From Rhizobium brockwellii (GTDB taxonomy: Bacteria > Pseudomonadota > Alphaproteobacteria > Rhizobiales > Rhizobiaceae), in assembly GCF_000769405.2 (NCBI RefSeq), contig NZ_CP053439.1:2170001-2234000 (forward strand): a DNA stretch of 64,000 nt, in the 5' to 3' direction. Under the pieces are notes generated by a model. That model did no database searches and was not told where the DNA came from. It worked only from the letters and a program-made list of their open reading frames with translations. Shown one piece after another: positions 35,485-50,719 of this stretch. The translations under genes and the position numbers were made by a program. The first letter of the stretch is position 1, and each line of letters begins with the position of its first letter.

Positions 35485-35805
35485 TCAGGCCTGGCGTTCC
35501 GGCACGTGCACCACGAGCCCGTCATAGACAGCCTTCATCCGGATCTGACAGGACAGCCGCGAGGTCGGGCGCACATCGAAGGCGAAGTCGAGCATGTCCT
35601 CTTCCATCGCTTCCGGCTGGCCGACCTTCTCCGTCCACTCCTCGTCGACATAGACATGACAGGTCGCGCAGGCGCAGGCGCCGCCGCATTCGGCCTCGAT
35701 GCCGGGCACCGAATTGCGCACGGCATTCTCCATCACGGTGGAGCCTTGGTCGACGTCGAGGTCGAAGCGCGTGCCGTCGAAGGCGACGATGGTAAGTTTG
35801 GGCAT
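35485..35805 (-). CDS. [2Fe-2S] ferredoxin, adrenodoxin/FdVI type
   Basis: 106-residue electron carrier. The four cluster ligands are C40, C46, C49 and C86 (CGGACACATC...RLSCQI), spaced C-x5-C-x2-C as in adrenodoxin and Rhodobacter capsulatus ferredoxin VI, and the length equals that of FdVI. The acidic helix [10 protein letters not shown] is the usual partner-binding face. Single gene; the electron acceptor is unknown, Fe-S assembly or a P450 being typical for the class. Confidence 0.94.
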
Positions 35806-36067: not shown

Positions 36068-36451
36068 TCAGCCGCGGCAGAGCTTCAAGATGAAATTCTC
36101 GGCGTCGATGACGGCGGCACCCAGCGCCGCCGTCGCGCCGGCATCGCCGCCGTTTTCCTCGACGGCTTCCGCCGTCTGCGACACGCGGAAGGCGCCGACC
36201 GAGCTTGCCGCGCCCTTCAATCGATGCGCGGCTGCGCCGATGCGGATGGTTTCACCGCTGGCAATATCCTGGAGACAGGCGCGGGCCTGGCGCGCAAACA
36301 TCTGAAGGACTTCGATTTCCAGCGTCTTGTCGCCCATCGTCTGCTTTGCGAGATGGACCAGATCGATCGGCCGGACCTTCGAGGGACACGGTCCCTTTGC
36401 ATTATCCGGCGCCTCGAATACGATGTTCAATGCCGCCATCTGGGCTGCCAT
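36068..36451 (-). CDS. Hpt domain phosphotransfer protein
   Basis: 127-residue histidine phosphotransfer protein from the ATG at 36451 (GGGAG upstream). The phospho-accepting His is H76 in AAHRLKGAASSVGA, matching the HxLKG consensus, inside a four-helix bundle (residues about 30-127). There is no kinase or receiver domain, so it is a free-standing relay element. Cognate partners are not adjacent: its divergent neighbour is the giant rgsE-like gene, with which it shares a promoter region containing a CtrA box. It is distinct from ChpT, which has a degenerate ATPase domain. Confidence 0.88.
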   Translation of the reverse strand: MAAQMAALNIVFEAPDNAKGPCPSKVRPIDLVHLAKQTMGDKTLEIEVLQMFARQARACLQDIASGETIRIGAAAHRLKGAASSVGAFRVSQTAEAVEENGGDAGATAALGAAVIDAENFILKLCRG

Positions 36452-36911
36452 TGCCAATTCTCCCGTCTCTGTCGTCCGCAGTTGCAACAGTTCTGCGTCA
36501 GGAGGGTGGCCATCCCGTTAAATTCCGGCACATTCAGGGCGGAAATCTCGCCATATGGTTAATGTCCGTTAAATATCCCTAAATTATTGGTTTTTAAGCG
36601 GTGTCCAAGATTCAAAGATGTTAACAACGGGTTAACGAGCCATGAATCTCAAGCCTTCATTAATTGTGTGAAGAGCCCAGATGTGTCACTACGATACTGG
36701 TGGAGCGGGTTTATGGTACGCGCCTTTGCCGAGCGAGTGGATAATGGTAGTGTTTTGATACCTTCCGTTTGAAAAAGCGGCTATCTACTCTGAAATGACA
36801 TGCTTATCCGTCCTTCGTTGGGATGGAGGGCTGGAACGGCAAAGTTGTTCCCGGTAGGCGGAAGCCGGGGATGTGCGGTTGGGCCGGCTGACAGTAATGA
36901 GGCATACCCGA
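36452..36911. other. Divergent promoter region hpt / rgsE
   Basis: 460 bp, AT-rich between 36540 and 36660, with no gene. It holds a perfect CtrA box (36621-36636), a second TTAA-N6-TTAA with spacing one short (36559-36572) and a GATTC site suited to CcrM methylation (36610-36614). The rgsE leader from here on would be long (about 275 nt from the CtrA box to the ATG). Confidence 0.6.
36621..36636 (+). promoter_or_regulatory. CtrA binding site
   Basis: TTAACAACGGGTTAAC, an exact match to the CtrA consensus TTAA-N7-TTAAC, 276 bp upstream of the rgsE start and 170 bp upstream of the hpt start. Confidence 0.7.
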
Positions 36912-39900
36912 ATGGCGAACAATAAATATAACGAGTCGATTGAGGACAAGGCGTTCAAGGCATTGGACGAGGCGCTCCAGATCGACTTCAGCAAGGATAA
37001 CGTACCGTCTCGCCGCGGCGACGCGCCCCAGGCCCCGGAGGCTAATGTGTCTGATCCAGTAAATGCGCGTAATCAGCAGGCCCAGGAAGAAGCGCAGCGC
37101 CGCAGCCGCCGCGGTGCCGCCGGCGAGCAAACCTCCAGGGGTCCGACCTTCGCGCCCGCCAACGATGCCAGCCGCAATACGCCCGCCTCGATCCTGAAAT
37201 CCTTTGACGGCGCCTCCAGCCGCTCCGCGGTACGCACCGCCACCCTGTTTTCCGTGCTTTGGGTCATGGCCGGCCTCGGTCTGATGTCGCTGCTTTATTC
37301 TCCACTGATCTGGCAGATCCGTTCGCTCGCCGATCTCGTCGCCCTGCCCGGCGTCATCGCCGGCCTCGTCGGAATCATCATTCCCGTGATGATGTTCTAT
37401 GCCTTCGCCATTATGATCTCCCGCGCCCAGGACATGCGCAACGCCGCCCGCTCCATGGCAGAGGTGGCATTGCGCCTGGCAGAACCGGAAACCATCGCCT
37501 CCGAGCGCATCATGACGGTTGGCCAGGCCGTGCGCCGTGAGGTCTCGGCCATGAATGAGGGCATCGAGCGCACCATCGCTCGTGCCTCCGAGCTGGAAAC
37601 GCTCGTCCATTCCGAAGTCAATGCCCTTGAACGTTCCTATGCCGACAACGAGTTGCGCGTGCGCGGCCTCGTCCACGAACTCGGCTCAGAGCGCGAGGCG
37701 ATCGTCAACCACGCCGACCGTATCCGCACCTCGATCGGCAGCGTGCACGACCAGTTGAAGGAAGAGCTGTCGCTTGCGACCGAAGAGATCGCGGTGCGGC
37801 TTGCCACATCGGGCGAAGCCTTCGCCTCGCTGATCGATACACGCGCCGCGACGATCCTGGAAAAGTCAGACAGCGCCCTGCAGTCGATGGGCAGCCTGCT
37901 CGCAGCCAAGACCGATACCCTGTTGCAGACACTGAACGCATCGGGTTTTGCGCTGGCCACCGAATTCGACAATCGCCTCGAAGCCCTGTCCGTCAATCTC
38001 AACGACCATGGCGAAAGGCTGCTCAGCCAATTCGAGACGCGCGCCTCGACCATGGACAGCAGCACGGAAAAGCTGAATGCGGCGCTGAACGAGCGTACGC
38101 ACCAGCTCAACGAGATATTGATCGCCCGCACCCGCGAGATCAACGAGAGCCTGACGTCAGGCGAACGCACGATCGGCGGCACACTCGACGACGTGCTGTC
38201 GAAGTTGAACAGCGCGCTCGACGAAAAGGGTGCAAGCTTCCGCCAGAGCCTGCAGACCACGGCCGACGACGCCGTCATGGATCTCGATGTGCGCTCCGGC
38301 TTCTTCGAGGAGCGGCTGCAGACGACCGTCGCCCACCTGTCGACCGCCTTCGACGAACGTGTCGCCGAATTCACCAGCGCCTTCGATAAACGCACAGGCT
38401 CGCTCGACACCAAGCTGATGGAGAGCCTCGCCCGTATCAACGAGACGCTGACCGGTGGCTCGGATTCGATCGACGGCATCCTGAATTCCGGCATCGACCG
38501 CCTTGGTTCGTCGATATCAGACCAGTCGCTGGCGCTCGCCACCACGCTCGCCACCGGCCACGAAGTGCTGGAAAGCACGCTCGGCAGCCGCGCGGAAGAA
38601 ATCACCACGGCACTCACCAGCCGCACCGGCGAACTGACCTCGGCGCTGCAGAGCGCTACGTCTGACATCGCGCTGACGCTTGCATCGGGCACCTCCGAGC
38701 TGCAGAACAACCTTCAGACACGCTCGGCCGAGTTCCGCGACACGCTGCGCACCACCACCACCGATTTGACGACTGCCGTTGCCGCCGGCACCGAACAGGT
38801 GACCGCTGCCTTCGGCGGTCGCGCCGAGGAGCTAAGCGGCGTGCTTGCCGCGCGTGCGGCCGAAATCAGCGAAGCGCTCGGCACGGCCCACGGCCGTATC
38901 GACAGCGTCATGGCAGAGCGCGGCGGCGCACTGGTCGAGGCGCTGACCACCCATCACGGCCGCTTCGAGGAAGCGCTGACGACCCGCTCCGACGCCATCA
39001 TCAATGCCGTCTCCGGCACCCATGACCGTCTTGCCGAGACGCTCGACGAAAAAGCGATGGCGCTTGCCATCTCTCTGAACGAGAGCCAGGCCCGCATCGA
39101 GGACACGCTCGAGACCCGCTCCGCAGCGCTGCTGCATGCGGTATCAAGCACGCATGACCGCCTCTCCGAGACGCTCGACGAAAAGGCGATGGCGCTCGCC
39201 ATTTCCCTCAGCGAAAACCAGGCCCGCATCGAGGATACGCTAGAGACCCGTTCCGAGGCCTTCCTCAAGGCCGTGTCTGGCACTCATGATCGCCTGTCAG
39301 AAACGCTGGACAGCAAGGCGGCCGCCCTTACGACCTCGCTCGACGAGCGCCATGCCCGCATCGAGGATGCGCTTGGAACGCGCGCCGAGGCTCTGCTGAA
39401 CACCGTATCCGGCACGCGCGACCGTCTTGCCGAGACGCTCGACGAAAAGACCGTGGCGCTCGCCGTTTCCTTGAACGAGAGCCAGGCCCGCATCGAGGAT
39501 ACGCTGGAAACCCGTTCCGCGGCTCTGCTGAACGCCGTCTCCGGCACCCATGACCGTCTGTCCGAGACCCTCGACGAGAAAGCGATGACGCTCGCCATCT
39601 CGCTCAATGAGAGCCAGTCACGGATCGAAGACACGCTGGAAGCCCGCTCGGAATCCTTCCTCAAGGCCGTGTCCGGCACGCACGACCGTCTCTCGGAAAC
39701 GCTCGACGAAAAGGCGACGGCGATCGCCGCCTCCCTGAACGAGGGCCAGAGCCGCCTGCAGGACACGCTGGAGAGCCGCTCGGAATCCTTCCTCAATGCG
39801 GTCTCCGCCACCCACGACCGCCTGTCCGAGACACTCGACGATCGGGCGATGGCGCTTGCCATCTCGCTGAACGAGAGCCAGAGCCGTCTTGAGGAGACGC

Positions 39901-42900
39901 TGACAACAGGCGCCGAGGCGATCACCAATGCGGTTTCCGGCACGCATGTCGGCCTGAACGGTGTGCTCGACCAGAAGGCCGCCGCCCTCGCCACCTCGCT
40001 GAACGAAGGCCAGGCTCGCCTCGAGGAAGCCTTGGGGCACCGCACCGCCGCGATCATCGGCGCCGTAATGGCAACCCACGACCGGCTCACCGATACGCTC
40101 GATGAAAAGACCATGGCGCTCGCCATTTCGCTCGATGATAACCAGAGCCGCTTCGACAGTGTGCTCGAAGCTCGCAGCAACGCCATCATGGAGGCCGTCT
40201 CCGGTGCCGAAGCCCGAGTCGCCGGCGCCTTCTCCGACAAGACCGATGCAATCCGCACCGCCTATACTGATAATCAGCAGCGGCTCGAAAATGCGCTTTC
40301 CGAACATAGCGCCGCCCTCTCAGGCGTTCTCGATACCGGCGGCGCCCGCTTCGAGGATCTCGTCGGCGGCTTGACCGGCCGCATCGAAGGCCGTCTGACG
40401 GATGCACATACACGGCTCGGAGGCCTCGCCGACGAGGCCGCAGCGCGCATCGAGGGTGGGCTTGCCTCTGCCCATGAACGCATGCGCACGACCCTCGAAG
40501 ACCGCGCCAACGCTATCGACCTGTCGCTGAACCAGGCCCATGCGCTGATCAGCGATACGCTGGCCGAACAGGCGACCAGCATCGGCACCTCGGTGGCGAC
40601 GAGCGTCGGCATGCTAGAATTGTCGCTTGAGCACCGTGAAGCCGCGATCCGCCAGGCGATCGATGCCGGCGCCCAGACATTGGAAGATCGCATGCATGCC
40701 GGCGCCGGCCAGATCGCCGACCGCTTCCAGGAGGCGGCAAATGCGATTTCGAGTTCCACTCAGAACTTCTCCGCTAATCTCGATCGGTCGGTCGAAAGCC
40801 TGACGGGCCGTTTTGAAGAAACTGGATCGCGCGTTGAATCTGGTCTCTCAGCGATCGAGACCCGTATCCGCGACGGCGTCGGCGGCGTTGCCGAAAAGGT
40901 CGAAGCAGCAAGCGGCCAGCTGTCCGGCGTGCTTGCCGACGGCGTCTCCCGTATCGGCGCGCTCAGCGACGATGCTACTCAGCGCATCTCGGCGACGCTC
41001 GAAGGCAGCGCCGCAAACCTCACTCAGGCGATCGACAGCCGCACCGCCAATCTGGCCGAGACGCTGGACAGCCGTACCATCAGCCTGACGGGGGCCATCG
41101 AGGGCCGCACCGCGAGCCTCGGCGAAACCCTCGACCGCGGCAATGAACGCATCGAGGAACGCCTCTCCACAATGGACCGTGCGTTGACCGTCGGCCTCGA
41201 GGCCGTCAACCGCACCATCGAAGGCAAGGCCGCCGGTCTCGCCTCGACGCTGCGCAACGCGGTTGCCGACGCGGCCCAGGGAATGGAAGGCGAAGCGACG
41301 AGAACCACCGAACTGCTTGGCAAGACCGGCCAGCAATTCGCCGAGGATCTCAATGCTAAAAGCGACGAATTCACCCGCACCATGGATGAGCGCTCGTCAC
41401 AGATCGTCACCCGCGTCGCCGAAGCCCAGAACCGGCTGGCAAGCCAGGCCGCTGCCGTTGCCCAGACCTTCTCGGAAGCCGGCAATGCCATCGTCAACAA
41501 GGTCGCCGAGGCCGAGACCATCGTCGGCACGCAGGTCAATGCCATCTCCAAGGTGCTGTCGGATGCCGGCCAGTCTCTGGAGACACGCGGCAATGCCATC
41601 CGCTCGACCCTGTCGGGCGCCGGCACCGAGATTTCCGCCACCATGGCAGATGTCGACCGGGCGCTCGAAGCCCGCAGCAGCGCCATTCGCACCACCCTCG
41701 AAGAGCGTGCCCGCGAGATCGATACGACGTTCTCCGAGATCGACCGGGCGCTGGAAGCACGCGGCAACTCGATCCGCTCGACGCTCGAAGAGCGCACCCG
41801 CGACCTCAATTCGATGCTATCAGGCCGTTCGGTCGAATTGACCCGCATCCTCGACGAAACGGCCCGCCCGATCATCGACCGGTACACCGATGCCGGCGAG
41901 CAGGCCGCCGCCCGCATCACCGCCGCGGCCAACCTCAGCGCCGACCGTCTGCGCGCCGAAAACGAAGCGCTCGCCAGCGCCGTTGCCGCCCGCACCGAGA
42001 ATGTCGCCAATGCCGTCAGCGCCATCGAGAATAGCCTGGTCGGCAACGTCAACGGCCTCGTCGAGCGCATGTCGGAAAGCAGTGCGGCGATGGCGATGAT
42101 GATGAACCGCGCCGCCGAGCAGTTGACCAGCGTCGACGGTCGTCTCGGCGATACCACCACGCGCTTTGCCGACTCCGCCACCAGGGCCGCTGAAATGGTC
42201 TCCGCCTCGACCAGGCTTCTCGAAGGCAAGGTTGACCGCCTCTCCGACATCTCGGGCCAGACGCTGTCACAGGTCGGCGGCATCATCGGCCGCTTCGACG
42301 AACACTCCAAGGTCCTGACCCAGGCCTCGCAGCTTCTCGGCGCCGCCCAATCCAACCTCGCCTCGACGCTCGAAGAGCGCGAGAGCGCGCTGCAGACACT
42401 CTCTGTCGGCCTCGTCCAGCGCTCCGCCGAGATCGAAAAGACCATGCAAGGCCTCGGCAGCATGATCGAGACCGTGTTCGAGCGGGCAGAGCAGCGCTCC
42501 AGCCAGGTTACCGGCAATTTGCGCCAGGGCGTGCAGTCCTCCTTCGCCGATATCGGCCGCATTCTCACCGAAACCGAGAAGCGTGCCCAGGAAGCGGCAG
42601 AGACGATGCGCGAGGCGATCACCCGCGCCGGCGACGAAGCCAATACGACGATCGACGGCACCTTTGCCAATGTCGAGCGCCGTTCCGGCGATCTCTCCAA
42701 TCGCATTCGCGGCGGTCTCACCGCCTCGCTGTCGGAAGTCGAGCGCATGCTCGGCGAAGCTGGCCGCGCGTCCGATGGCGCCGCCCAGAACATGCGGGAA
42801 GCGCTGCGCGAGGCGATCGATGATGCCGTCGGCCGCTTCTCCGGCGCCACCGAGGATATCCGCCGCTCTGCGGCCGATATCCGTAACGAGCTTGACGCCA

Positions 42901-43775
42901 CCCGCGCCGAGCTGAAGCGCGGCGCTTTCGATCTTCCCGAGGAAGCCAAGGAAAGCGCCTCGGCCATGCGCCGGGCCGTCGCCGAGCAGATCAAGGCGCT
43001 GCAGGATATCTCCCAACTCGTCGGCCGCTCCAGCCAGCAGCTCGAGATCTCCGAGCCTGTCGCCCGCACACTCGCTCAGGTGCAGCCTGCCCCGCGTCCC
43101 GCCCAGCCGGTCACAGCCCAGCCGCCGCAGCCGGCAGCACCGCCGCCGATCGAAGCGACAGGTCTGCGCGGAACGATCGCACCGTCTGCGCCGGCTGCCG
43201 CTCCCCAGCGCGCCGCCCCGCAGCCTGCACCCGCTCGCCAGGAAACAGGCCGCCCGGAAACAGGTCGCCAAGAGCCGGCACGTCCGGAAAGCGGCGGCTG
43301 GATCAGCGATCTCCTGCGTGGCGCATCGCGTGAGGAGGCGGCCGACGAGGCCGCGGCCGCCCGTGTTCCCGCCCGCCCGGCGGAAACTGCCGCACCGGCC
43401 GCGCGCAGCAACGATAGCCGCAATCCGCGCCACGTTGTCGAATCGCTGAACTCGCTCTCGGTCGATATCGCCCGCGCCATCGATCACGACGCCTCGGTCG
43501 ATCTCTGGCGCCGTTACCAGCGCGGCGAGCGCGACGTCTTCACCCGCCGCCTCTACACGCTGAAGGGCCAGCAGACCTTCGACGAGATCAAGCGCAAATA
43601 TGACCGCGAACCGGAGTTCCGCACCGCCGTCGACCGCTACATCGGTGATTTCGAAAAGCTGCTCGCCGACGTCGCCCGCACCGACCCGAACCGGACGGTG
43701 ACGCAGTCCTACCTCACCTCGGATACGGGCAAGGTCTACACGATGCTCGCTCATGCCGCAGGCAGGCTCGGCTGA
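36912..43775 (+). CDS. rgsE: Giant hendecad-repeat polar growth protein (GPR/RgsE-like)
   Basis: 2287 residues from the ATG at 36912. An N-terminal cytoplasmic stretch (1-110) precedes two transmembrane helices (about 111-134 and 145-169), then about 1900 residues of nearly continuous 11-residue helical periodicity, a Pro-rich linker (about 2055-2165) and a conserved C-terminal domain of about 120 residues (RNPRHVVESLNSLSVDIARAID...). Residues 701-1096 are nine near-identical 44-residue units. Size, layout and apolipoprotein-like repeats match Agrobacterium Growth Pole Ring protein and Sinorhizobium RgsE, needed for unipolar growth. Orthology is inferred from memory of those proteins. A CtrA box lies upstream. 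Confidence 0.85.
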   Translation: MANNKYNESIEDKAFKALDEALQIDFSKDNVPSRRGDAPQAPEANVSDPVNARNQQAQEEAQRRSRRGAAGEQTSRGPTFAPANDASRNTPASILKSFDGASSRSAVRTATLFSVLWVMAGLGLMSLLYSPLIWQIRSLADLVALPGVIAGLVGIIIPVMMFYAFAIMISRAQDMRNAARSMAEVALRLAEPETIASERIMTVGQAVRREVSAMNEGIERTIARASELETLVHSEVNALERSYADNELRVRGLVHELGSEREAIVNHADRIRTSIGSVHDQLKEELSLATEEIAVRLATSGEAFASLIDTRAATILEKSDSALQSMGSLLAAKTDTLLQTLNASGFALATEFDNRLEALSVNLNDHGERLLSQFETRASTMDSSTEKLNAALNERTHQLNEILIARTREINESLTSGERTIGGTLDDVLSKLNSALDEKGASFRQSLQTTADDAVMDLDVRSGFFEERLQTTVAHLSTAFDERVAEFTSAFDKRTGSLDTKLMESLARINETLTGGSDSIDGILNSGIDRLGSSISDQSLALATTLATGHEVLESTLGSRAEEITTALTSRTGELTSALQSATSDIALTLASGTSELQNNLQTRSAEFRDTLRTTTTDLTTAVAAGTEQVTAAFGGRAEELSGVLAARAAEISEALGTAHGRIDSVMAERGGALVEALTTHHGRFEEALTTRSDAIINAVSGTHDRLAETLDEKAMALAISLNESQARIEDTLETRSAALLHAVSSTHDRLSETLDEKAMALAISLSENQARIEDTLETRSEAFLKAVSGTHDRLSETLDSKAAALTTSLDERHARIEDALGTRAEALLNTVSGTRDRLAETLDEKTVALAVSLNESQARIEDTLETRSAALLNAVSGTHDRLSETLDEKAMTLAISLNESQSRIEDTLEARSESFLKAVSGTHDRLSETLDEKATAIAASLNEGQSRLQDTLESRSESFLNAVSATHDRLSETLDDRAMALAISLNESQSRLEETLTTGAEAITNAVSGTHVGLNGVLDQKAAALATSLNEGQARLEEALGHRTAAIIGAVMATHDRLTDTLDEKTMALAISLDDNQSRFDSVLEARSNAIMEAVSGAEARVAGAFSDKTDAIRTAYTDNQQRLENALSEHSAALSGVLDTGGARFEDLVGGLTGRIEGRLTDAHTRLGGLADEAAARIEGGLASAHERMRTTLEDRANAIDLSLNQAHALISDTLAEQATSIGTSVATSVGMLELSLEHREAAIRQAIDAGAQTLEDRMHAGAGQIADRFQEAANAISSSTQNFSANLDRSVESLTGRFEETGSRVESGLSAIETRIRDGVGGVAEKVEAASGQLSGVLADGVSRIGALSDDATQRISATLEGSAANLTQAIDSRTANLAETLDSRTISLTGAIEGRTASLGETLDRGNERIEERLSTMDRALTVGLEAVNRTIEGKAAGLASTLRNAVADAAQGMEGEATRTTELLGKTGQQFAEDLNAKSDEFTRTMDERSSQIVTRVAEAQNRLASQAAAVAQTFSEAGNAIVNKVAEAETIVGTQVNAISKVLSDAGQSLETRGNAIRSTLSGAGTEISATMADVDRALEARSSAIRTTLEERAREIDTTFSEIDRALEARGNSIRSTLEERTRDLNSMLSGRSVELTRILDETARPIIDRYTDAGEQAAARITAAANLSADRLRAENEALASAVAARTENVANAVSAIENSLVGNVNGLVERMSESSAAMAMMMNRAAEQLTSVDGRLGDTTTRFADSATRAAEMVSASTRLLEGKVDRLSDISGQTLSQVGGIIGRFDEHSKVLTQASQLLGAAQSNLASTLEERESALQTLSVGLVQRSAEIEKTMQGLGSMIETVFERAEQRSSQVTGNLRQGVQSSFADIGRILTETEKRAQEAAETMREAITRAGDEANTTIDGTFANVERRSGDLSNRIRGGLTASLSEVERMLGEAGRASDGAAQNMREALREAIDDAVGRFSGATEDIRRSAADIRNELDATRAELKRGAFDLPEEAKESASAMRRAVAEQIKALQDISQLVGRSSQQLEISEPVARTLAQVQPAPRPAQPVTAQPPQPAAPPPIEATGLRGTIAPSAPAAAPQRAAPQPAPARQETGRPETGRQEPARPESGGWISDLLRGASREEAADEAAAARVPARPAETAAPAARSNDSRNPRHVVESLNSLSVDIARAIDHDASVDLWRRYQRGERDVFTRRLYTLKGQQTFDEIKRKYDREPEFRTAVDRYIGDFEKLLADVARTDPNRTVTQSYLTSDTGKVYTMLAHAAGRLG
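39012..40199 (+). repeat. Nine tandem 132-bp units inside rgsE
   Basis: Each unit encodes 44 residues of the pattern SGTHDRLSETLDEK-AMALAISLNESQ-ARIEDTLETRS-AALLNAV, i.e. four 11-residue turns. Units stay exactly in register from 39012 to 40199; a tenth degenerate unit starts at 40200. Confidence 0.92.
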
Positions 43776-44642: not shown

Positions 44643-46004
44643 CTATTGAGCATTGCCGCCATCAGTCCGGGCCAGATCATCTGACGCCCAAGCCTGAATT
44701 GCCTGATTGAACACACGCTCACCGTCCTCGCCCTTTTCAAGCGTCAGCAGCGCTCGTGTGCCGTTCTGATAAAAGATCGGCAAATCAATCCATCGGCGTT
44801 TACCAAGCAATTCGATGTTTTTGGCGCGAGCATCAGGCAAACCATTGAGCGCCAGCATATAGAGAGTGTCAGTGACCTTGCCGGCCACGGCTATCAACAT
44901 GTCACCGCGAGCGCCTTCCGTGGTCTTCATCGACATGCTCGTCCAACTATTAATTCCACCTCCTTCAAATCCTGCCGCGATCTGAAACGATAGTTCGAAG
45001 AGATGGCTCGCAGCGATCGATAGATCCGTGTTTCTTTCCAGCGTCAGTACAGCCGTCAGGTTACGCTGCGGAATTTCCATGTGGCCCCGCACGACTGGAT
45101 CGGAGTGGCCCTTGCCGTCAGTCCGCATATCGATTGACCAAGTCACCGAGCCAGCCAGTGCCGTCGGCTCCGGCATTCCAACTCTCTCCTCATAGAGAAC
45201 CATTTGAGCTTTGGTAGCCGGCAAATTGGTGGCGGAGGATGGGCTGAGATAGACAGGTTCCTCGGGCAAGCTGGAATATTCGAACGGTGTCTGCTGGCCA
45301 TCGGTTTTATTTCGGACATAGGCAGAGACGCGTCTGAAAAGAAAATTCACCTCGAGCCCGGGCATCTCCAGGAACTTCAGCAGGCCCTCGGTATAGGGGC
45401 TGTGATCGGAATCGACGCCATTTGCAGTGGCGCCCGCCTCCGCCGAATAGCTGACGAGCAAATTCGGCGTTGGTTCGATCCCCGCAAGCCCTCGTCCGAT
45501 GGAACGGCTGGCTCCGTTTGGCTTCATTTTCAGCACAAAGGGATTCTTGCGGTATACGTCGAGAAGGACGATGCGAAGACCTTTGACGCTGCGAACAGCA
45601 TCCAGAACGTTGTCCAACGTCACGGTTTCAGGGGTCGCCTGCGCATCTGTGCTTAAAGTGGCATCCGTCGGAATGAGATAGTTGGAGCCGTTAGGCTCTA
45701 TTCCGTGTCCGGCGTAGAATACCACGGCGATATCTGCCCCGGCCGCAACATCGGAAAACGTCGACAGAGCGGAATCGAATTCAACCTTTGTCGCATCATG
45801 AACGACCGTCACCTCGAAACCCATTCGCCGAAGCGCTGCGCCGATAGCAGTCGCGTCATTTCCGGGGTTCCGAATCTTTTCGACCTGGCTATAGGCCGAG
45901 TTGCCAATCACCAGCGCAACGCGTGCAGATGACGCAAGGCTGGAAAGAGCAGAGAAGATGAGCACACATAGGCCAACGACCAAAACCATTGCCGAGCGCA
46001 TCAT
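44643..46004 (-). CDS. Caspase-like (peptidase C14) protein lacking the catalytic cysteine
   Basis: 453 residues: signal peptide (about 1-26), a caspase-like p20 domain (about 27-250) and a C-terminal beta-rich region of unknown kind (about 275-450). The p20 domain keeps RVALVIGNSAY, the catalytic His H100 in VVFYAGHG and the LLD strand, but where active homologues have LDACR it reads LDVYR, with Tyr at 151 (codon TAC at 45554-45552). The mature protein contains no cysteine at all, so it cannot be a cysteine protease. The frame is otherwise intact, suggesting a binding or scaffold role in the periplasm. Single gene; no gasdermin or toxin partner nearby. Confidence 0.85.
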   Translation of the reverse strand: MMRSAMVLVVGLCVLIFSALSSLASSARVALVIGNSAYSQVEKIRNPGNDATAIGAALRRMGFEVTVVHDATKVEFDSALSTFSDVAAGADIAVVFYAGHGIEPNGSNYLIPTDATLSTDAQATPETVTLDNVLDAVRSVKGLRIVLLDVYRKNPFVLKMKPNGASRSIGRGLAGIEPTPNLLVSYSAEAGATANGVDSDHSPYTEGLLKFLEMPGLEVNFLFRRVSAYVRNKTDGQQTPFEYSSLPEEPVYLSPSSATNLPATKAQMVLYEERVGMPEPTALAGSVTWSIDMRTDGKGHSDPVVRGHMEIPQRNLTAVLTLERNTDLSIAASHLFELSFQIAAGFEGGGINSWTSMSMKTTEGARGDMLIAVAGKVTDTLYMLALNGLPDARAKNIELLGKRRWIDLPIFYQNGTRALLTLEKGEDGERVFNQAIQAWASDDLARTDGGNAQ

Positions 46005-49348: not shown

Positions 49349-50719
49349 TTAACGCCGCGTCCGGCCGTCATATTGCTTCACCGTGTCCCCGCCGAAGATC
49401 AGGCGTTGCGGATTGCGGTCGAAGTTGGTGATCGTATCGTTCAGATTGCTCACGGTTCCGCGCATGTCGTTGACGAGAGTCTGCACGTCGCGCAAGCCGC
49501 CGCTCGAGAATTTCTGCAGGTTGTCGGCAATCGGCCCAATGCGCGAATTCAGGTTGTCGGCCACCTTCTTGAAGGATTCCAGCGTATCGCGCGCTTCAGT
49601 GAACAGCGATTGCGTATTGTCGGTTCCGAGCAGCGCGTCGACCTTGATGAGAATGCCGTCGATGCGGGTCGAGGCCGAATTCAGCTTGTTGGAAAGCTGC
49701 GACACGTCCTGGATCGTCTGGTCGATATCTTTCTGACGCGCCGAAACCGTGTTGGCGACATCGCGGATCGAGGCGACGGCAGCGCGAGCATCCTTGGTCG
49801 CTTGCGCGATGTCGTCGACCGAGCCCTTCACCTTCGCCGGGTCGATCTGGGCAACGAGCGTATCGACGCGGTCGAGTGTCGCCTGCGCCTGCTTGCCGAA
49901 ATCATTGAAGGTGGTGGCCGTCTGGTCGAATTTCTGGATCGCACCCTTGAGGTCGCCGGAGGCATCGGCGACATTGGCGGTAATCTTCTCGGCATTGGAG
50001 ACGATGTTGTCGATCTTCTGCGCATCGACCGCCTTGACCAGCGACTCGACGGCTTGAAGCGTCGAATCGACACGGCCGGAGACCGCCTTCACCGTATCGG
50101 AGAGCTGGCCGACGCTCTGCAGGAAGGCGTCGATATTGCCGGAATTCTTGGCAAGCGCATCCGAGAACGTCTCGGCATTCTTGAAAGTCTCGGTCAGCGG
50201 CCCGCGCGAATCTTCGATGAAACCCTGAAGTTCGCCGACTGCGTCGTTGGCGCGATCGAGAATCTTGTCAGCCGTCGCCAGAAGATTGGTGACGCTCGAC
50301 TGGTCGGCAACGATGACGGCGCGTTTGCCGTTGTCGATCGCATGCTGGAGAATGCTTTCCTCGCCCTTGCGGCCGCCCGAGAGTTCGATATAGGCAGCCC
50401 CGGTCAAACCCTGGATTTCAAGGGCGGCCTTGGTGGAGGGATAGATCGGCGCGTCGGTGCGCACCTGGGTGAAGGCCAGCGAATATTGCGGATCGTCGGC
50501 ATCGATCGACAGCGTTTGCACCGAGCCGATCTGGATGCCGTTGAAGCGCACCGGCGAGCCGACGCTGAGGCCGTTGGCCGAGCCCGGAATACGCACGATC
50601 AGTTCCGTCATCGGGCCGCCGCGGCCATATTCGGCCATCCAGTAGACGAAGCCGAAGGCAGCCGCGATCACCAGCACCGTGAAAAAACCGACAATCGTGT
50701 AATTGGCTTTGGTTTCCAT
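49349..50719 (-). CDS. mlaD: MlaD/MCE-domain lipid transport protein
   Basis: 456 residues: an N-terminal transmembrane anchor (YTIVGFFTVLVIAAAFGFVYWMA, about 7-29), one MCE domain (about 38-125; VRFNGIQIGSVQTLSID, GLTGAAYIELSGG) and a long helical tail (about 150-440) of repeating hydrophobic pattern. This single MCE plus long helix layout is commoner in alpha-proteobacterial and Mce-type systems than in E. coli MlaD (183 residues). It is the substrate-binding, ring-forming part of a phospholipid importer/exporter with MlaE and MlaF. It starts 9 bp after mlaF. Confidence 0.9.
   Translation of the reverse strand: METKANYTIVGFFTVLVIAAAFGFVYWMAEYGRGGPMTELIVRIPGSANGLSVGSPVRFNGIQIGSVQTLSIDADDPQYSLAFTQVRTDAPIYPSTKAALEIQGLTGAAYIELSGGRKGEESILQHAIDNGKRAVIVADQSSVTNLLATADKILDRANDAVGELQGFIEDSRGPLTETFKNAETFSDALAKNSGNIDAFLQSVGQLSDTVKAVSGRVDSTLQAVESLVKAVDAQKIDNIVSNAEKITANVADASGDLKGAIQKFDQTATTFNDFGKQAQATLDRVDTLVAQIDPAKVKGSVDDIAQATKDARAAVASIRDVANTVSARQKDIDQTIQDVSQLSNKLNSASTRIDGILIKVDALLGTDNTQSLFTEARDTLESFKKVADNLNSRIGPIADNLQKFSSGGLRDVQTLVNDMRGTVSNLNDTITNFDRNPQRLIFGGDTVKQYDGRTRR

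What the first reader, a model, noticed from the sequence alone, without database searches (positions are those of the whole stretch)
36912..43775. Giant 2287-residue hendecad-repeat protein at a CtrA-linked locus
Almost the whole protein after two membrane helices follows an 11-residue helical period (44 = 4 x 11 in the tandem block), which favours a right-handed or straight coiled coil hundreds of nm long, or membrane-surface amphipathic helices as in apolipoproteins. It then ends in a Pro-rich linker and a conserved C-terminal domain. Agrobacterium GPR and Sinorhizobium RgsE have this layout and organise the growth pole. Here the exact repeat number, register and the conserved C-terminus are visible.
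Basis: partly seen in the sequence, partly recalled or inferred. Interest (0 to 1): 0.8.

Follow-up and report, generated by a model that had tools for sequence, protein, structure and literature searches.

The report
Rhizobium growth-pole ring protein (GPR/RgsE)
This giant gene is the Rhizobium version of a known protein that organises one-ended cell growth in rhizobia; its very long helical rod changes length mostly in steps of 11 amino acids, a pattern that makes its unknown architecture testable.

Summary
Confirmed: ATG 36912 to stop 43775, 2287 aa, two N-terminal membrane helices, a long rod of 11-residue periodicity, a Pro-rich linker, a conserved C-terminal domain. By synteny and sequence it is the Rhizobium orthologue of Agrobacterium GPR / Sinorhizobium RgsE: a new member of a known kind.

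Not found in print in my searches: (1) Register lock. Among 58 Rhizobium proteins, 51 of 51 rod gaps between relatives at least 80% identical are multiples of 11 (37 of 37 distinct), against 1 of 156 linker/C-terminal gaps at any identity. Sinorhizobium is looser (9 of 28). (2) The C-terminal domain, not in Pfam, occurs across Alphaproteobacteria, including Brevundimonas TipN, the new-pole marker; a loose GPR-TipN similarity is already in print. (3) Rod period is 3.642 or more in 68 of 83 order proteins and below 3.605 in 39 of 42 outside; the rest lie between. Weak short rods depend on method.

Most likely mechanism (inferred): a membrane-anchored, extended coiled-coil scaffold holding the C-domain far from its anchor. 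Lipid-lying helices and back-folded bundles are not excluded.

The parts
36912..43775 (+). gpr/rgsE orthologue, 2287 aa plus stop
36912..36992 (+). conserved N-terminal segment, residues 1-27
   Evidence: start conserved in Rhizobium; 65% identity to S. meliloti 4H41 over 26 aligned residues
37239..37301 (+). membrane helix 1, about residues 110-130
   Evidence: hydropathy; boundaries approximate, set by eye
37350..37418 (+). membrane helix 2, about residues 147-169
   Evidence: hydropathy; boundaries approximate, set by eye
37710..41291 (+). rod with near-constant 11-residue register, residues about 267-1460
38964..40151 (+). nine 44-residue (4 x 11) tandem units, residues 685-1080
41292..42866 (+). 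second part of the rod, residues about 1461-1985, local period 3.57-3.66 with phase drift
42936..43397 (+). Pro-rich linker, residues 2009-2162
   Evidence: proline positions; variable linker length
43398..43772 (+). conserved C-terminal domain, residues 2163-2287, predicted as six helices
36621..36635 (+). CtrA-box-like TTAA-N7-TTAA
   Evidence: CtrA motif recalled, binding not shown
36068..36487 (-). divergent stand-alone Hpt gene, conserved neighbour
   Evidence: Pfam PF01627; synteny
35485..35805 (-). 2Fe-2S ferredoxin gene, conserved neighbour
   Evidence: Pfam PF00111; synteny

Best explanation
The gene encodes the Rhizobium orthologue of GPR/RgsE, the membrane-anchored growth-pole scaffold of the order. 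Shown here: orthology, anatomy, 11/3 periodicity, rod indels that in Rhizobium mostly keep the register, and a C-terminal domain shared across Alphaproteobacteria, TipN included. [quoted passage not shown] Inferred: a two-helix membrane hairpin anchors the protein with the rod in the cytoplasm; the rod is an essentially continuous helix (1460 residues without proline, about 220 nm at a recalled 0.15 nm per residue) that pairs with copies of itself through the narrow a/e stripe, giving a stiff, straight to right-handed coiled coil; lateral pairing builds the ring lattice; and the Pro-rich linker and C-domain at the far tip recruit client proteins.
For: C-domain found once in nearly every order genome (142 of 150; 99 of 101 in the family draw; 60 of 60 in the genus draw, the window's own included). 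Conserved neighbourhood, counted on loci with 1.2 kb or more upstream: Hpt in 76 of 76 named, 33 of 39 family, 29 of 39 order loci (28 of these divergent); ferredoxin in 76 of 76, 36 of 39, 37 of 39. S. meliloti 4H41 orthologue: 2094 aa, 51% identity overall, 89% in the C-domain; published RgsE is 2089 aa. Hendecad: (position a 83% and e 86% large hydrophobic, d 72% small, basic residues at h and k). Register lock: 51 of 51 rod gaps, 37 of 37 distinct, are multiples of 11 at 80% identity or more; at any identity 87 of 96, against 1 of 156 in linker/C and 0 of 30 in the N region. Alignment-free: 22 distinct rod-start-to-mid lengths fall in two classes mod 11, while 28 linker lengths fall in ten. 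1460 residues without proline. Published two-hybrid and pulldown links of RgsE to RgsA, RgsS and TolQ, and loss of function on C-terminal deletion of GPR.
Against: No structure or oligomer was computed for the rod. Published GPR foci are 50 nm wide and the authors argue the helix must fold back. GPR lacking its C-terminal 332 residues still forms paired foci, so the C-domain is not needed for ring formation; yet the shorter deletion of 221 residues forms none on its own. From about residue 1460 on the register is not strict. Rod length varies from 179 to 2312 aa in the order set by the procedure, so it is no fixed ruler. RgsE is dispensable in S. meliloti, with slow aberrant growth. In Sinorhizobium only 9 of 28 rod indels are multiples of 11.
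Confidence: 0.68

Rival explanations
1. The rod lies on the inner membrane as amphipathic helices, as in apolipoproteins, and organises lipids at the pole.
For: PF01442 (apolipoprotein) matches at 222 bits, cut-off 90; the Agrobacterium authors favour a lipid role.
Against: Hydrophobic stripe narrow (two large residues per 11), basic residues on one flank only, net charge about -6 per 100 residues, HeliQuest-type discriminant mean -0.03 (formula and threshold recalled) with 3.2% of windows over 0.68. An 11/3 period alone may bring a PF01442 match (inference).
Confidence: 0.2
2. The multiples of 11 are a mutational by-product: degenerate 33-bp units recombine, and selection on register is not needed.
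For: The tandem block is a true DNA repeat, and 26 of 37 distinct indels at 80% identity or more lie in or near it (residues 640-1125). Lengths of 29, 58, 87 and 116 in Sinorhizobium look like copies of another unit.
Against: Outside residues 640-1125, 11 of 11 distinct indels at 80% identity or more are still multiples of 11, though the inserted DNA is only 39-79% like its nearer neighbour. The 18- and 29-residue exceptions are also near whole helical turns.
Confidence: 0.3
3. The rod folds back into short antiparallel segments, giving a compact node at each focus.
For: Published 50-nm foci; Gly-Gly pairs and phase shifts occur in the rod.
Against: 1460 residues without proline and near-constant phase over about 1200 residues. 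Foci of a tagged end may mark only the anchors.
Confidence: 0.25
4. The GPR-TipN resemblance is convergence of coiled-coil proteins, not homology.
For: The N-module profile also gives 20.8 bits to an unrelated coiled-coil ORF of the window (MlaD-like, 49349-50719), within the range of two of three TipN loci, 17.6 and 22.1. TipN C-domain scores are low (28-32 bits for the three loci) and they sit on a very long branch.
Against: The C-domain model is a compact six-helix domain; its profile, built without TipN, hits 122 of 122 TipN-type proteins (mostly near-copies) and 0 of 162 shuffled and 0 of 162 reversed sequences, and among 721 ORFs only family members. hhalign C-domain 95-97%, N-module 98%, controls under 1%.
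Confidence: 0.08

Closest known systems
GPR (Atu1348, 2115 aa), Agrobacterium tumefaciens
   Same: Two N-terminal membrane helices, about 1700-residue helical region matching PF01442, Pro-rich region, C-terminus needed for function; same order and family
   Different: Sequence of Atu1348 itself not compared here (Agrobacterium vitis CG78 used: 52% overall, 91% C-domain); here 2287 aa with nine 44-residue tandem units
RgsE (SMc00190, 2089 aa), Sinorhizobium meliloti
   Same: Orthologue in strain 4H41: same neighbours, 51% overall, 89% C-domain
   Different: No perfect CtrA box found upstream there; rod indels in the genus include 18 and 29-type lengths
TipN (new-pole marker, Caulobacterales)
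   Same: N-terminal membrane segments, helical rod and a divergent C-domain; published as a new-pole marker
   Different: Rod 293-340 residues with a period of 3.589 in three proteins; Caulobacter crescentus TipN itself not examined, Brevundimonas proteins, several named tipN, were
Apolipoprotein A1/A4/E domain, PF01442
   Same: Over Pfam's cut-off; 11-residue helical periodicity of that family is recalled
   Different: Membrane-anchored giant, acidic, narrow hydrophobic stripe

Membership tests
GPR/RgsE | Two N-terminal membrane helices followed by a long helical region | tested here: met
   cytoplasmic topology itself not tested
GPR/RgsE | Pro-rich linker and conserved C-terminal domain | tested here: met
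GPR/RgsE | Single-copy orthologue with conserved neighbourhood | tested here: met
GPR/RgsE | Growing-pole localisation, ring and shape phenotype | not testable with these tools
   published for Agrobacterium and Sinorhizobium, localisation for Brucella; not for this strain
PF01442 apolipoprotein | Profile match over the curated cut-off | tested here: met
   222.2 bits, cut-off 90
PF01442 apolipoprotein | Lipid-binding amphipathic helices | tested here: inconclusive
   composition argues against; no binding data
Heptad coiled coil | 3.5-residue hydrophobic period | tested here: not met
   power 0.0 at 3.5, 88.3 at 11/3
TipN | Shared C-terminal domain | tested here: met
TipN | Polarity function (ParA/PopZ timing) | not tested
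   nothing here bears on it
CtrA regulon | TTAA-N7-TTAA upstream, conserved | tested here: inconclusive
   55 of 58 Rhizobium but 8 of 39 family and 8 of 39 order; no binding data

The most novel reading that the evidence does not exclude
An ancestral alphaproteobacterial new-pole landmark of TipN type, with a rod of about 25/7 residues per turn, was turned into the polar-growth ring of Hyphomicrobiales when its rod changed to an 11/3 period and lengthened. Since then the rod has been register-locked, most strictly in Rhizobium: it evolves by adding or removing whole hendecads, so that rod handedness and phase, not exact length, are what selection keeps.
Probability: 0.3. Interest if true: 0.78.

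Novelty: new member of a known kind. Interest (0 to 1): 0.55.

Why it matters
How rhizobia and their relatives grow from one pole without the usual MreB machinery is open (absence of MreBCD stated in a paper passage), and the architecture of the giant ring protein is unknown. The 11-residue lock gives a simple in vivo test: rod insertions of 11 should be tolerated where 4 or 7 are not. The class-wide C-domain, not in Pfam, and the split in rod period tie the growth ring to the Caulobacterales polarity marker and give many short relatives that are easier to study than a 2300-residue protein. Relatives in Erythrobacter are now annotated merely as 'ATPase'.

Tried and rejected

Selections and drops. 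Genus draw: 60 genomes, 57 fetched plus the window's own; G250 (fragment) and G275 (open frame 1464) not fetched. Family draw: 99 of 101 matched; order draw: 142 of 150 matched. Full genes were taken for 40 same-family genomes (37 from the family draw only, G069 in both draws, G105 and G136 from the order draw) and 40 other order genomes, and for 40 class genomes outside the order (156 of 387 matched, six of these in the order). L233 gave no frame and L240 was too short. In one search, two of 44 outside-order rods were too short to measure, and the named loci L171-L250, except L209 and L215, were left out. TipN proteins are mostly near-copies, so 122 of 122 is few independent cases. Rod periods depend on method for weak rods: by the whole-rod spectrum three order proteins with short rods (L165, L167, L169) peaked at 3.56-3.58 and L116 at 3.598; by the windowed procedure the same four give 3.649, 3.641, 3.654 and 3.615.

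Papers. PMC8262873: abstract, passages and sections 9 and 12. PMC7327166, PMC9938171, PMC10127582, PMC13170164, PMC8546619, PMC9731437: passages. PMC4433202: a term search with no hits. Others: search listings only. The 2019 PNAS paper on GPR and the 2006 TipN papers were not read. Absence from print rests in the held open-access library; supplements were not available.

Full report
WHAT IS THERE. The window lies in a 7.1-Mb genome whose nearest named loci are Rhizobium; R. sophorae, R. ruizarguesonis and R. laguerreae have the identical C-terminal 129 residues. The gene runs from ATG 36912 to stop 43775 and encodes 2287 residues. The start is conserved in the 57 fetched genus members. Order of parts: a short conserved N-terminus, two membrane helices (about 110-130 and 147-169), a helical rod to about residue 1985, a Pro-rich linker (2009-2162) and a C-terminal domain (2163-2287).

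PERIODICITY. Over residues 240-1960 the large-hydrophobic signal peaks at 3.667 with power 88; at 3.5 it is 0.0. In 132-residue windows the phase drifts by only about a third of a turn between residues 267 and 1460, then moves on, with local periods of 3.57-3.66. Aligned on the 11-residue register (residues 301-1440), positions a and e are 83% and 86% large hydrophobic, d is 72% small, acids are commonest at b, c, f, g and j, and basic residues sit at h and k. The 44-residue tandem block holds nine units with 26-40 of 44 matches to the consensus. There is no proline between residues 193 and 1652; across the 58 Rhizobium proteins the longest proline-free stretch is 1207-1548 residues.

REGISTER LOCK. 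I fetched 57 further full genes from the genus, linked the 58 proteins by a minimum spanning tree and counted gaps. In the rod, 87 of 96 gaps are multiples of 11; at 80% identity or more, 51 of 51. In the N region it is 0 of 30 and in linker plus C-terminus 1 of 156, at any identity. Counting each site and length once: 37 of 37 at 80% or more, 61 of 68 overall. Outside the tandem block 38 of 42 gaps are multiples of 11, 15 of 15 for the close pairs, although the inserted DNA there is only 0.39-0.79 like its nearer neighbour. Alignment-free check: the distance between two unique conserved 7-mers at rod start and mid-rod takes 22 values from 967 to 1308 in 58 of 58 proteins and falls in two classes mod 11 (45 and 13); mid-rod to rod end takes 5 values in 49 proteins, 46 in one class, 2 and 1 in others; 28 linker lengths in the same 49 spread over ten classes. 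Against a strict rule: nine exceptions of 1, 10, 18, 23, 29 and 76 residues occur, all between pairs under 80% identity, and in 15 Sinorhizobium/Ensifer-type proteins only 9 of 28 rod gaps are multiples of 11, the rest including 18, 29 (seven times), 58, 87 and 116, but also 1 and 3. Whole numbers of helical turns describe most of these, not all. Repeat-mediated mutation and selection on register both predict the pattern; the data do not fully separate them.

ORTHOLOGY. The C-domain is found in 142 of 150 order genomes, 99 of 101 in the family draw and 60 of 60 in the genus draw, nearly always once. All three genomes drawn from one order family (f36; completeness 99, 76 and 86%) lacked a match, unexplained. 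The S. meliloti 4H41 gene encodes 2094 residues from its first methionine and is 51% identical overall, 67% in the N-module, 45% in the rod and 89% in the C-domain. Counted on loci with at least 1.2 kb upstream, a divergent Hpt gene and a ferredoxin gene stand beside gpr in 76 of 76 named loci; Hpt in 33 of 39 family and 29 of 39 order loci, 28 of the latter divergent. Papers describe GPR as a 200-nm six-focus ring needed for polar growth, and RgsE as polar, linked to RgsA, RgsS and TolQ, and non-essential with a strong shape defect; in Brucella abortus RgsE is at the new pole.

CLASS-WIDE FAMILY AND TipN. A profile of 56 C-domains hits 156 of 387 genomes of the class, six of the hits in the order. 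Of 40 outside proteins fetched, 30 show two or more N-terminal membrane segments at the cut-off used (three of the other ten are cut by a contig end), and all 40 have the domain at the C-terminus, with acidic rods. One is an Erythrobacter protein that NCBI calls 'ATPase'. Weak hits in one family proved to be Brevundimonas proteins whose relatives NCBI names tipN. A C-domain profile without TipN hits 122 of 122 TipN-type proteins, mostly near-copies, and none of 162 shuffled or 162 reversed sequences; among 721 ORFs its 44 hits are the 40 class proteins, three TipN and the window's gene. Profile-profile probability is 95-97% for the C-domain and 98% for the N-module, controls under 1%. The N-module alone is weaker evidence, because an unrelated coiled-coil ORF scores 20.8 bits where three TipN loci score 17.6, 22.1 and 36.7. 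A similarity of GPR to TipN is already stated in print, and another paper calls TipN analogous; the passages I saw do not show the shared domain.

TWO ROD GEOMETRIES. With one windowed procedure for all, 68 of 83 order proteins have a rod period of at least 3.642 and 15 lie between 3.605 and 3.642 (lowest 3.615). Outside the order 39 of 42 measurable rods lie below 3.605 (median of all 3.58, near 25/7) and 3 lie between (highest 3.623), so the two sets touch only in the middle band. For weak short rods the method matters: a whole-rod spectrum put three short order proteins at 3.56-3.58 and one long one at 3.598. On a C-domain tree the labels cluster strongly (16 changes against a shuffled mean of 50.8), but the tree rests on 129 columns, many forks are open, five order proteins with 11/3-type rods fall beside outside proteins, and TipN sits on a very long branch. 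Taking a relaxed helix as 3.6 or slightly more (recalled), 3.66 implies a slight right-handed and 3.57 a slight left-handed supercoil; that is inference.

MECHANISM. The narrow stripe with one basic flank, net charge of about -6 per 100 residues and low lipid-binding score fit helix-helix pairing better than lipid surfaces. A continuous rod of about 220 nm (0.15 nm per residue, recalled) would fit a 200-nm ring only if it runs along or across it. The paper's figure of 600 nm for an extended 1700-residue helix seems to use a rise larger than that of a helix; at 0.15 nm it would be about 255 nm. I propose that membrane anchors make the visible foci and the rods bridge between them. The C-domain, not needed for ring formation but needed for function, would recruit clients at the far end.

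CtrA. The only TTAA-N7-TTAA of the window lies at 36621-36635. It is present in 55 of 58 Rhizobium upstream regions against 0.006 expected per sequence, in 8 of 39 family and 8 of 39 order loci against 0.018 and 0.009 expected, and missing from the Sinorhizobium/Ensifer and A. vitis loci. So it is mainly a Rhizobium trait of uncertain target.

VERDICT. An ordinary member of a known and important family, with a real and testable regularity that I did not find described. The protein is a new member of a known kind; the register lock and the rod-period split give the finding its interest.

Noticed in passing
window 44643-46004 (-): Caspase-family protein (PF00656) in which the stretch that usually holds the catalytic cysteine reads LLDVYRKNPF, so probably an inactive caspase homologue; the usual motif is recalled.
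   Followed up: partly
window 36068-36487 (-): Stand-alone Hpt phosphotransfer gene, divergent from gpr and conserved beside it across much of the order; partner not sought.
   Followed up: partly
L336, L337, L338, L341: Mini-versions with open frames of 330-377 aa in class family f70: membrane segments and a divergent C-domain with almost no rod.
   Followed up: partly
order genomes G036, G078, G113 (family f36): All three genomes drawn from this order family lack a detectable C-domain; loss, divergence or (in two) incomplete assembly.
   Followed up: no
Sinorhizobium/Ensifer loci among L091 and L196-L242: Rod indels of 29, 58, 87 and 116 residues suggest a 29-residue (8-turn) unit there instead of 44.
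   Followed up: no
window 49349-50719 (-): MlaD/MCE-family protein with a long helical tail that also matches coiled-coil profiles.
   Followed up: no
P0001 and relatives (Erythrobacter and others): Family members annotated 'ATPase' or 'chromosome segregation ATPase', probably misnamed because of their coiled coil.
   Followed up: partly
L316, open frames upstream of its main ORF: The N-terminal module of this relative lies in a 202-aa frame separated from the main frame by a stop; described only.
   Followed up: no
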